A DNA stretch of 35,603 nt, taken from positions 1 through 35,603 of the forward strand of contig DATIZR010000072.1 in the NCBI GenBank assembly GCA_035516965.1, given 5' to 3'. Every line of letters begins with the position of its first letter. The first letter of the stretch is position 1. A program made the translations under genes and the position numbers. The notes beneath the pieces were generated by a model, which saw nothing but the letters and a program-made list of their open reading frames with translations, was not told the DNA's origin and did not search any database. This document shows positions 5,836 through 17,521 of the stretch, one piece after another. The DNA comes from Nitrospirota bacterium. Its GTDB lineage: Bacteria > Nitrospirota > UBA9217.

Positions 5836-6100
5836 ATCTGCGTAAATCTTTATAATCTGCGGATAAAATTCTTTTAGAACCTATCTATCCGCAGATGTCG
5901 TACCCTGCTGTTGCCAAAACGCGGGCACAAGCAGATGGACGCAGAAAAAAATGAAAAGACTTCTGGGTTTAAAACGGCAAGCCGAATCTAACGACTCTGC
6001 TTCTCACATTCATTCAGAATCTATCTGCGTTAATCTGCCTGCACCCAGCGCTTACGAGCGGGACCGCGAGTGCAGGGCGCGTAATCTGCGGATAAAAAAT
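5836..6100. repeat. Dispersed ATCTGCG-type intergenic repeats, no gene
   Basis: This 386-bp gene-free interval is filled with fragments of one repeat type. ATCTGCGTAAATC followed by TAATCTGCGGATAAA occurs at 5836-5867. ATCTGCGTTAATCTGC at 6023-6038 and GTAATCTGCGGATAAA at 6081-6096 are two halves of a second copy separated by a palindromic insert. Partial inverted fragments (ATCCGCAGATG near 5888, GCAGATGGACGCAG near 5931) lie between. Such repeats are a known feature of some environmental genomes; function unknown. No credible coding frame. Confidence 0.7.
6038..6076 (+). repeat. 39-bp palindromic element, copy A, inserted in another repeat
   Basis: The ends CCTGCAC and GTGCAGG are perfect 7-bp inverted repeats, and an inner CGCT-TACG-AGCG hairpin lies between them. 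The element splits an ATCTGCGTTAATCTGC...GTAATCTGCGGATAAA repeat into halves. A second copy in the opposite orientation lies at 16581-16621, sharing the first 10 and last 11 bases plus an internal ACGAG. REP-like by structure. Confidence 0.65.
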
Positions 6101-11131: not shown

Positions 11132-11572
11132 ATGAAAAAAAAACTTATTCTGACGATTACAATCGCAGCTACCCTGTTCACGGGTTCAGCCTATGCAGGC
11201 GAGGGCGGCCCCGCAGCCAGGGAGGAGAATGGCATTACGGTGTTCAGCACGGGTCCCATAGCATTCGACGATGGCGCAATAGGACCGGCAGTTATGGGTG
11301 ATGCCTATGTTGAAGGCTCCGCAGCGGGTGGCATGCGGGAAGATGAGTCTGCACTCGAGCCGAACAATGGCATTACCCTGTTCAGCATCGGTCCCGTGGC
11401 ATTGGACGATGCTGCAATAGGACCGGCCGCAATAAGCAGCCCCACTGTTGAAGGCTCCGCAGCGGGTGGCATGCGGGAAGATGAGTCAGCTCTCGATCCG
11501 TATAACGGCATTACCCTGTTCAGCACGGGCCCCGTGGCGTTCGACAACGGTACCACCGAACCCCTGCGATAG
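11132..11572 (+). CDS. Secreted protein of three 46-residue repeats
   Basis: A 146-residue protein with a signal peptide (MKKKLILTITIAATLFTGSA, cleavage near AYA-G). The mature part consists of repeats of exactly 138 bp: the NGIT(V/L)FS(T/I)GP(I/V)A motif begins at 11229, 11367 and 11505. Units one and two continue with (V)EGSAAGGMREDESAL; the third is cut short after AFDNGTTEPLR. Long stretches are identical in the DNA, suggesting recent expansion. Rich in Gly, Ala, Asp and Glu, so acidic and probably extended. No known family recognised. The ATG follows GAGGTG. Its divergent position from the two-component regulator and the tandem TGTGACG site suggest control by that regulator. Confidence 0.8.
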   Translation: MKKKLILTITIAATLFTGSAYAGEGGPAAREENGITVFSTGPIAFDDGAIGPAVMGDAYVEGSAAGGMREDESALEPNNGITLFSIGPVALDDAAIGPAAISSPTVEGSAAGGMREDESALDPYNGITLFSTGPVAFDNGTTEPLR

Positions 11573-11650
11573 GATCGTACAGGTAGGGTTGCAGGGCCGT
11601 CATGCACTCTCAGGACAGGCGAAGTAAAAGGCCTGTTCGCGCATTGATCG

Positions 11651-15707: not shown

Positions 15708-15872
15708 TCGCACCGGTCTCATCTCCTGTCGTTATGAATTTTGAGTCGCCGAAAAGACCGCCAACCGGTTTCAGCAACATGGTATCATAGGAACACGCGG
15801 CCTCGGCAGCGAAGAGAGCGCGGGGATTGAGTTCATCGGGCTGTGACGGCTGAAGCAGAACAGGGAGGGAAC

Positions 15873-16463
15873 ATGATCCGCTATACCGGTGTGAACCACC
15901 TAGCCCTGGCCACGGGGAACATGGATGAGACCATCCGGTTCTGGAGGGACCTGCTCGGCATGAGGCTCATTGCCGGCCTCGGCAAGCCCGGCTACCGCCA
16001 GTACTTCCTCCAGGTCTCGGACCACGACATGATCGCTTTTTTCGAATGGCCCGGCGTGAGCCCTGTCGAAGAGAAGGAGCACGGGCGTCCGGTGAAGGGG
16101 CCCTTTGCCTTCGACCACGTTGCCTTCGGCGTGCAGGACGAGGACGAACTCTGGAAACTGAAGGAGCGGTTCGAGGCCGCCGGGATATGGGTCTCCGAGG
16201 TCATCGACCACGGGTTCATTCACTCGATCTATTCCTTTGACCCCAACGGCATTCCCGTGGAGTTCAGCTATTATGTCCCCGGCACCGATGTGCGGAAGAG
16301 CCCTCTCATGGCGGACCGGGAGCCAACGCTCCTGGCAAGGGAGGGCGCCGAGCCGCGGTTCGACCGGTGGCCTGCCGCTGCAGCGCCGACGCCGAGAGAG
16401 AAGCGCAGGATCTACCCCGGCGCGGGAAGCGAGCTGTTCCACGGGAAAAAGACAAACGCATGA
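15873..16463 (+). CDS. VOC-superfamily (glyoxalase/dioxygenase-fold) protein
   Basis: A 196-residue protein. Residues 1-125 form two beta-alpha-beta-beta-beta modules of the vicinal oxygen chelate fold: MIRYTGVNHLALATGNMDET starts the first and FAFDHVAFGVQDEDEL the second. Candidate metal ligands are His in VNHLAL and in FDHVAF and Glu in IPVEFSYY, as in ring-cleavage dioxygenases and glyoxalase-type members. A Pro/Arg-rich tail of about 65 residues ends REKRRIYPGAGSELF. The substrate is unknown. The ATG is preceded by AGGGAGG; an earlier in-frame GTG/ATG lacks this support. Convergent with sodC. Confidence 0.82.
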   Translation: MIRYTGVNHLALATGNMDETIRFWRDLLGMRLIAGLGKPGYRQYFLQVSDHDMIAFFEWPGVSPVEEKEHGRPVKGPFAFDHVAFGVQDEDELWKLKERFEAAGIWVSEVIDHGFIHSIYSFDPNGIPVEFSYYVPGTDVRKSPLMADREPTLLAREGAEPRFDRWPAAAAPTPREKRRIYPGAGSELFHGKKTNA

Positions 16464-16523
16464 ACATGCTTGTCCCCGTCCGAACGGGTTCGAGTCCGGG
16501 ATCGAACCTGGGCGAGGACCTGT

Positions 16524-16653
16524 ATCCCGCGACTTGCAATCCCCCGGCTCCTGCCGGAGATAATGCGTCGTAGTCCGCACCCTGCACTCGCGCTTATCAC
16601 ACTCGTCAACTCTGGGTGCAGACGGGAAATCGTATTCTTAAAGCGAGCCCCGG
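16524..16653. repeat. Direct repeat unit, copy 1 (interrupted)
   Basis: Begins ATCCCGCGACTTGCAATCCC, continues with CCGGCTCCTGCC and TAATGCGTCGTAGTCCGC, and resumes after an insert with ATTCTTAAAGCGAGCC. The same blocks recur at 16733-16818. The 41-bp palindromic element at 16581-16621 sits between the two halves of this copy. Non-coding on both strands. Confidence 0.7.
16581..16621 (-). repeat. Palindromic element, copy B, inserted in another repeat
   Basis: Read on the minus strand it starts CTGCACCCAG, contains ACGAG and ends GCGAGTGCAGG, matching the element at 6038-6076 at both ends, with a 3-base length difference in the middle. It interrupts copy 1 of the direct repeat, as copy A interrupts a different repeat family. 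Confidence 0.65.
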
Positions 16654-16696
16654 GGACTCCTCTGATCTGAAACAGTTTCTCTCTCGGGTATCACAC

Positions 16697-16727
16697 AACA
16701 AAGGCGGGGAGGGCCCCCGCCTTTGTT
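16697..16727. terminator. Bidirectional-type terminator hairpin between the VOC gene and sodC
   Basis: AACAAAGGCGGGG pairs perfectly over 13 bp with CCCCGCCTTTGTT around a 5-nt loop. T- or A-rich flanks are short. It lies between the two copies of the direct repeat, in the spacer of two convergent genes, where a shared terminator is expected. Confidence 0.7.
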
Positions 16728-16732
16728 ATTGA

Positions 16733-16818
16733 ATCCCGCGACTTGCAATCCCCCGGCTCTTGCCAGGGGTAATGCGTCGTAGTCCGCGGGAGGTCGCGTT
16801 CTTAAAGGGAGCCACCGG
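16733..16818. repeat. Direct repeat unit, copy 2 (uninterrupted)
   Basis: ATCCCGCGACTTGCAATCCC, CCGGCTCTTGCC, TAATGCGTCGTAGTCCGC and then GTTCTTAAAGGGAGCCACCGG, contiguous here. Comparison with copy 1 shows where the palindromic element was gained. A small GCCACCGGCTCC/CTGCCGGTGGGGGC hairpin follows at its end. Confidence 0.7.
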
Positions 16819-16856
16819 CTCCTGCCGGTGGGGGCTCCACTCATTTTGTCGATGAG

Positions 16857-17384
16857 CTATTTGATCACTCCGCAGGCCACCCTGCCACCGCCGCCTCCGA
16901 GGGGCGCCGGCGCGTCCGCGTAATTGTCTCCGCCCGCATGGATCATGATCGAGCGGCCCCTCACGTCAGACAGCTTGAGGCGCGGCGCGACCACGGGAGC
17001 CGTCGCCTTGCCGTCCTTGTCCACGACGAGAGCGGGCAAATCGCCGAGATGGCCCTTGCCCATGGGGCCTTCGTGCTTGCCGGACGCCATGGGATCATAG
17101 TGTCCGCCGGCCGCGAAACCCGCAGCAGGTTTTCCGTCCTTCATGCCCGGACCGCAGTCCGGTTTGTCGTGCACATGAAAGCCGTGGACTCCCGGTGCCA
17201 GGTCCGTGAGGGCAGGGGCCAGCTTGAGGCCCTGAGGCGTGTCGCTCAGGGTGATGGAGCCGATCGTCTTGCCGATGCCCTGATCGGAAATGAGGTTCAG
17301 GGGAACCACGGTCTCGTCTGCGAACAGGGCGGGAGCGAGTGCCAGGACCATGCCGAGCGCTGCTGCTGCAATGAACAGTTTCAT
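16857..17384 (-). CDS. sodC: Cu/Zn superoxide dismutase, periplasmic
   Basis: A 175-residue protein with a signal peptide of about 22 residues ([20 protein letters not shown], cleaved near FA-D). Copper ligands are His70 and His72 (GFHVH), His95 (GGHYDP) and His149 (MIHAGGDNY). Zinc ligands are His95, His104, His112 and Asp115 (KGHLGDLP). Cys77 and Cys171 can form the family disulfide. It converts periplasmic superoxide to peroxide and oxygen. The start has AGGAGG upstream; an in-frame start 19 codons earlier would bury the signal peptide. A possible -10 box (TATACT) lies at 17437-17432 without a good -35. Confidence 0.95.
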
Positions 17385-17521
17385 GGGTAATTCCTCCTTT
17401 CGGCGGCAGAGCAATGCCGCGTCATTTTCCAAGTATACCACAGAGAAACTGCTGCTCCGCTGAGTCGGCGGCCGTGATCCTTGTTTTCCAGCCGTCTCGG
17501 AATGCTACGGATGAAAAGCAT

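What the first reader, a model, noticed from the sequence alone, without database searches (positions are those of the whole stretch)
16524..16818. Two direct repeats around a terminator, one split by the palindromic element (copy B)
Comparing the interrupted copy 1 with the intact copy 2 shows exactly where a 41-bp palindrome was gained. It is the second time in this window that the same palindrome lies inside another repeat, so insertion into repeats looks systematic.
Basis: seen in the sequence. Interest (0 to 1): 0.6.

Follow-up and report, generated by a model that had tools for sequence, protein, structure and literature searches.

The report
Tiny mobile hairpin nested in mini-transposons
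A hairpin-forming DNA element of only about 44 letters has repeatedly inserted itself, at one precise kind of site and facing one way, into other repeats (including a 110-letter mini-transposon) in a family of uncultured Nitrospirota bacteria, which makes it one of the smallest apparently mobile DNA elements and a tractable case for working out how such elements move.

Summary
Window 16524-16663 and 16733-16841 are two copies of a dispersed ~110-bp, two-hairpin mini-element ("M"). Copy 1 is split after AGTCCGC by a 45-bp element ("E", 16579-16623); copy 2 is empty. M has about 14 long copies in this genome (5-6 filled) and occurs in 7 of 13 family relatives. E has about 30 copies here. Each also occurs in genomes without the other, so E is not an ancestral part of M. 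One orthologous M locus is filled in one species and empty in another. In one genome, M cores with 146 shared identical bases are empty or carry two different E variants. E always sits at the same site and orientation in M. Across 64 distinct sites it follows YR-C (C at -1 in 58/64) with no target duplication, and removing it best restores tandem repeats at exactly the inferred junction. E also nests in itself. Closest precedent: the Nostoc small dispersed repeats. Most likely mechanism: a non-autonomous single-strand hairpin moved in trans by a Y1/HUH transposase; the enzyme is inferred, not shown. Insertion into repeats is systematic, through a short target motif.

The parts
16524..16663 (+). 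Mini-element M, copy 1 (filled, decayed): left hairpin arm ATCCCGCGACTTGCAAT..., split by E; right hairpin internally deleted
16579..16623 (+). Element E, copy B (45 bp: ACCCTGCACTCGCGC...CTGGGTGCAGAC), inserted after YRC (CCGC) of M
16697..16727 (.). 13-bp perfect inverted repeat (AACAAAGGCGGGG / CCCCGCCTTTGTT) between the two copies; possible bidirectional terminator of the convergent genes, not part of E or M
   Evidence: not called by the terminator scan
16733..16841 (+). Mini-element M, copy 2 (empty, complete: ATCCCGCGACTTGCAAT...GGGGGCTCCACT); shows the empty site AGTCCGC^GGGAGGTCGCG at 16787/16788
6037..6078 (-). Element E, copy A (42 bp), inserted in the tandem repeat CCGCAGATTACGC^AGATTAACGCAG
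15843..16463 (+). Glyoxalase-family gene, converging on the intergenic repeats
16857..17441 (-). Cu/Zn superoxide dismutase gene, converging from the other side

Best explanation
E is a non-autonomous mobile element of 42-45 bp, essentially one imperfect hairpin with a short unpaired 3' tail (RCCC-NNC-AY ... RT ... GNN-GGGY-GCARGC). It inserts precisely, in one orientation, on the 3' side of YRC and usually before RRA, without duplicating the target. This motif occurs inside the ~110-bp mini-element M, inside 7-9-mer tandem repeats, and inside E itself, so E accumulates in repeats and nests. Window copy 1 of M received (or kept) an E at this hotspot; copy 2 did not. Shown: the families, precise boundaries, site and orientation constancy, recurrent events, absence of target duplication, and the conserved hairpin. 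Inferred: that E moves as a single-strand hairpin processed in trans by a Y1 (HUH) transposase of the IS200/IS605-REP type, several of which every E-bearing genome encodes. Confidence: mobile, site-specific hairpin about 0.9; Y1/HUH enzyme about 0.45.
For: Genome-wide family and split copies. Independence of E and M across genomes. Orthologous filled/empty locus (L085/L088, flanks 93-94% identical). G001 M cores that share 146 identical bases with different or no E. On the M tree, 13 filled/empty changes, at least 5 forced by supported branches, filled copies not clustered (78/500 shuffles as low). Target: C at -1 in 58/64 distinct sites (binomial p about 3e-29), Y at -3 51/64, R at -2 50/64; rejoined flanks form tandem repeats better than any of 200 partner shuffles and better than every mis-cut. 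Covariation of the hairpin: 95.8% cells paired, 19 double changes, 0/500 shuffles. Y1 transposases in all seven E-bearing genomes; reverse transcriptases in none of them. Literature: IS200/605 and REP enzymes act on single-strand hairpins, with cleavage chosen by pairing to a short guide (PMC6006769, PMC8266576).
Against: No Y1 gene, or any other gene, has been found flanked by E or M ends. E has one hairpin, whereas IS200/605 ends are two, and it lacks the GT[AG]G tag of REPs. Y1 genes also occur in genomes without E, so co-occurrence is weak evidence. All genomes are draft MAGs. Gain and precise loss cannot be told apart at single loci.
Confidence: 0.6

Rival explanations
1. E spreads through an RNA intermediate, copied into target DNA by a reverse transcriptase, as I recall was proposed for the cyanobacterial small dispersed repeats.
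For: Same general behaviour (small, structured, in tandem short repeats and minitransposons, self-nested); directional insertion without target duplication would fit.
Against: PF00078 reverse transcriptases were found in none of the seven E-bearing genomes and only in five E-free relatives. Drafts are incomplete, so this is not absolute.
Confidence: 0.15
2. One ancient compound M+E element spread, and the empty copies arose by precise loss of E.
For: Site and orientation of E in M are always the same; precise loss is possible for hairpins by replication slippage or HUH excision; one orthologue keeps only the left half of E (L266/L267).
Against: E occurs in genomes without M and mostly outside M; M copies of G007/G010 are all empty; near-identical M cores carry quite different E variants; E target sites outside M are restored to tandem repeats by removing E.
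Confidence: 0.12
3. E is moved by an unknown recombinase (for example a serine/tyrosine recombinase or an IS110-like enzyme guided by RNA) rather than by a Y1 transposase.
For: Strong sequence specificity of the target and no duplication; no helper identified. IS110/IS1111-type elements are known to target REP palindromes (general knowledge; Tobes and Pareja list IS-into-REP cases, PMC1525189).
Against: No full-length element with E ends was found in G000 or relatives; IS110 genes were not searched.
Confidence: 0.2
4. Assembly artefact or chance similarity.
For: All genomes are draft MAGs and hairpins can assemble poorly.
Against: The same junction appears in independent assemblies, genera and contexts; chance expectation is zero.
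Confidence: 0.02

Closest known systems
Small dispersed repeats (SDRs) of Nostoc, Elhai et al. 2008 (Genome Res 18:1484; paper not held, content from memory; PMC4390886 confirms precise insertion of SDR5 between bases 3 and 4 of HIP1)
   Same: Very small structured element; precise insertion into a short motif; inside tandem short repeats, inside minitransposons and inside itself; limited to one clade
REP sequences / REPINs with RAYT (TnpAREP) transposases (PMC3116915, PMC8266576, PMC6006769)
   Same: Intergenic imperfect hairpin of similar size with a short unpaired tail; many copies; Y1 transposases in the genome
   Different: No GT[AG]G tag, no RAYT gene flanked by E, and E is found as a single precisely inserted hairpin
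CGTC-tagged palindromic repeats incl. dRS3/RPE (PMC3733652)
   Same: Short palindromes without dedicated transposase; some families sit inside other palindromes
   Different: E has no CGTC tag; repeats resembling CGTC REPs are a separate family that flanks E at a few loci
IS200/IS605-type MITEs
   Same: No target duplication, fixed 3' side of a short motif, orientation constant; M itself has left and right hairpins like such ends
   Different: E is a single hairpin and no transposase with matching ends was found

Membership tests
Small dispersed repeats (SDR) | Structured element supported by compensatory changes | tested here: met
   4 pairs, 19 cells with double changes, 0/500 shuffles
Small dispersed repeats (SDR) | Embedded in tandem short repeats, in minitransposons and in itself | tested here: met
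Small dispersed repeats (SDR) | Length 21-27 nt (from memory) | tested here: not met
   42-45 bp
Small dispersed repeats (SDR) | RNA intermediate | tested here: inconclusive
   no PF00078 reverse transcriptase in E-bearing draft genomes
REP/REPIN with RAYT | GT[AG]G at the 5' foot of the hairpin | tested here: not met
   flanks on either strand are YRC or GCYTGC
REP/REPIN with RAYT | RAYT gene flanked by the same repeats | tested here: not met
CGTC-tagged palindromic repeats | Unpaired CGTC tag at one end | tested here: not met
   no CGTC at either end of E
IS200/IS605-type MITE (E) | Insertion 3' of a short motif without target duplication | tested here: met
IS200/IS605-type MITE (E) | Two subterminal hairpins (left and right end) | tested here: not met
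   single hairpin
IS200/IS605-type MITE (M) | Left and right hairpins in the same orientation | tested here: met
   both have CCGGCTCCTGCCGG cores
IS200/IS605-type MITE (M) | Parent element with the same ends | tested here: not met
   none in the searched genomes
DDE-type MITE | Terminal inverted repeats with target duplication | tested here: not met
   no duplication at empty/filled pairs

The most novel reading that the evidence does not exclude
A 44-nt hairpin carries, in its own stem and 3' tail, everything needed to be excised and to find a YRC^RRA target. That would make E a minimal single-hairpin transposon moved by a dedicated but unrecognised enzyme, mechanistically distinct from REPINs and from two-ended IS200/605 elements.
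Probability: 0.2. Interest if true: 0.75.

Novelty: new variant of a known kind. Interest (0 to 1): 0.5.

Why it matters
How repeats of under 50 bp spread in bacterial genomes is an old open question. Here the element is small, its boundaries and target are defined to the base, empty and filled versions of the same site exist between species and between near-identical copies in one genome, and the conserved hairpin differs from the visible palindrome. That gives direct, testable substrates for candidate enzymes. It also extends the Nostoc type of nested very small repeats to Nitrospirota.

Tried and rejected
Target duplication: rejected, because when the base before E is not C the base after E does not follow it (L169, L190, L226). 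The CTGCAC/GTGCAG palindrome as the conserved stem: rejected, C4-G45 is broken in 22/66 and double changes are no more than a shuffle gives. Y1 genes as parents of E or M: no E or M ends near 4 + 27 + 18 Y1 loci. Autonomous elements with E or M ends: none among partial matches. Viral carriage: no E or M match in the viral contigs. Rfam: nothing near a gathering score. Orthology of the window's intergenic region in G001: SOD found but what follows it shows neither E nor M and is not clearly orthologous. Orthologues of E sites outside M in genus g8: several share E; others lack it, but the intergenic sequence is too diverged for a clean junction, so they were not used as proof. Laying out the whole own genome was not available.

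Full report
WHAT IS THERE. Window 16464-16856 is an intergenic stretch between two convergent genes, a glyoxalase-family gene (15843-16463, +) and a Cu/Zn superoxide dismutase (16857-17441, -). It holds two direct copies of a repeat, M. The first 58 bases of the copies are 91% identical. Copy 1 (16524-16663) is interrupted after AGTCCGC by 45 bp (16579-16623, element E); copy 2 (16733-16841) runs uninterrupted through AGTCCGCGGGAGGTCGCG. Copy 1 has also lost the middle of its right hairpin. Between them lies a 13-bp perfect inverted repeat, perhaps a shared terminator, unrelated to E or M. The other E in the window is at 6037-6078 (minus strand), in a tandem repeat.

M AND E ARE TWO INDEPENDENT DISPERSED FAMILIES. 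A search of the window's own 3.8-Mb genome with copy 2 finds about 14 long copies of M, 5-6 of them split at the same point, plus short 45-47-bp derivatives in which left and right arms are joined within the shared CCGGCTCCTGCCGG core. A search with E finds about 30 copies, most of them outside M. In 13 relatives of the same family, M occurs in G001, G006, G007, G008, G010, G011 and G013; E occurs in G001, G004, G008, G011 and G012 by the E search, and in G013 inside M. G007 and G010 have M, always empty, and no detectable E; G004 and G012 have E and no M. A scan of 84,980 prokaryote species for a degenerate E pattern hit only Nitrospirae MAGs (GWC2_57_9, BP4.bin67, clean5362, DBS2-1.bin42). 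No match was found in viral contigs.

PRESENCE/ABSENCE. The cleanest case is an orthologous M locus in two species of genus g8. L085 (G013) carries a 44-bp E; L088 (G011) is the exact empty site; flanks are 93-94% identical. In G001, M cores that share 146 identical bases occur without E (L108) and with two different E variants (L134, L086; the filled cores hold two extra bases at the junction), while a close relative carries a third E type (L113). On a tree of 58 M cores the filled/empty state needs 13 changes, at least 5 forced by well-supported branches, and filled copies are not clustered (78 of 500 shuffles as low; the tree is poorly resolved overall). Recurrent events at one site are therefore shown; the direction of any single event is not.

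TARGET AND BOUNDARIES. In 68 distinct flank contexts (64 used for statistics) E follows YRC: C at -1 in 58/64 (background 24%), R at -2 in 50/64, Y at -3 in 51/64, then mostly RRA. The flanks are target, not element: the empty M sites contain them, and removal of E from many other sites restores tandem repeats, e.g. CCACGAAGTCAC^GAAGGCGCGAAG, CCGCAGATTACGC^AGATTAACGCAG, CGCAGAGAACGC^AGAGGTCGCGGAGG, CCACGGATGAACAC^GGATAAACACGG. A self-similarity score across the rejoined junction is higher than in all 200 shuffles of partners and falls with every mis-cut tried. There is no target duplication. E also inserts into E, at CAC^TCG in the loop (L099; related nested forms L020, L052, L054, L057). The part of M that receives E, CGC^GGGAGGTCGCG, resembles the tandem-repeat target CGC^AGAGGTCGCGGAGG, which explains why M is a hotspot.

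STRUCTURE. A shifted hairpin that starts at the first base of E (column 1 with 41, CCC with GGG, then 6-36, 7-35, 8-29, 9-28) has 95.8% of cells paired, four pairs with changes on both sides and 19 such cells, none reached by 500 shuffles except one for the pair count. The strongest single covariation is C9-G28 to T9-A28 (49 versus 12 sequences). Relatedness of the copies weakens such tests, and the structure was chosen on the same alignment. The tail GCARGC stays unpaired.

MECHANISM. Shown: precise, oriented, duplication-free insertion next to a short motif, of a hairpin with an unpaired tail. Inferred: single-strand processing by a Y1/HUH transposase acting in trans. IS200/IS605 and REP enzymes recognise such hairpins and choose the cleavage site by pairing to a short guide (PMC6006769, PMC8266576). 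All seven E-bearing genomes encode 2-6 Y1 proteins, but none lies next to E or M ends, and E-free genomes have them too. A reverse-transcriptase route is less likely because no PF00078 protein was found in any E-bearing genome, against five of the seven E-free ones.

COMPARISON. Working like: the very small mobile repeats of Nostoc (Elhai et al. 2008; paper not held; from memory: 21-27 nt, within tandem heptamers, minitransposons and themselves; PMC4390886 confirms that SDR5 inserts precisely between bases 3 and 4 of HIP1). As a member: size and sequence differ, so I call it a new variant. It is not a REP (no GT[AG]G tag, no flanked RAYT), not a CGTC repeat, and not a two-ended IS200/605 MITE. 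PMC3733652 notes a few REP families sitting inside other palindromes, so nesting alone is known.

LIMITS. All genomes are fragmented MAGs, counts are lower bounds, and enzyme identity is open.

Noticed in passing
window 11228-11641: Three tandem 138-bp units (AATGGCATTAC...), 81-83% alike over the shared part, inside or beside an ORF; coding-like repeats.
   Followed up: no
L015, L016, L017, L019, L021, L072, L128: 45-47-bp derivatives of M in which the left arm is joined directly to the right arm within the shared CCGGCTCCTGCCGG hairpin core.
   Followed up: partly
G001 loci L107-L113, L131-L134, and L103 (G008): M copies carry an additional inserted module of their own between GCGCTT and AAGCAGTTCC (CCTCGCGACCGTGAAGAATGAGGCGTCGCGAG and variants), so M seems to have more than one insertion slot.
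   Followed up: no
L185, L191, L198, L232-L234, L238: In G001 and G012, E is part of a larger repeat CTCGCTAACCC[E]ACCCCGCAGCAAGCTGCGGGGAATGCGCTC.
   Followed up: no
L037, L038, L052, L054, L057: E lies between two repeats that look like CGTC-type REPs (GTCATTCCGGGCTTGACCCGGAATCCAG ... CTGGATTCC...GGAATGAC).
   Followed up: partly
L266, L267 versus L164: Orthologous site in G008 keeps only the left half of E, cut within the hairpin loop; looks like an internal hairpin deletion.
   Followed up: no
L135 (G006) and L290 (G011): Nearly identical short IS200-type elements (TnpA about 147 aa) with left hairpin GAATCCCCCGTGGCTTGCCACGGGG and right end GGGGCGGGGTAGTTCACT; the ends slightly recall those of M (GAATCCC..., ...GGGGCTCCACT).
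   Followed up: partly
L061: A Y1 transposase gene whose C-terminal 300 bp is repeated directly downstream with three copies of a 31-bp repeat (ATAAACTTAGCCTGACCCCATTGGTGCTCCC).
   Followed up: no
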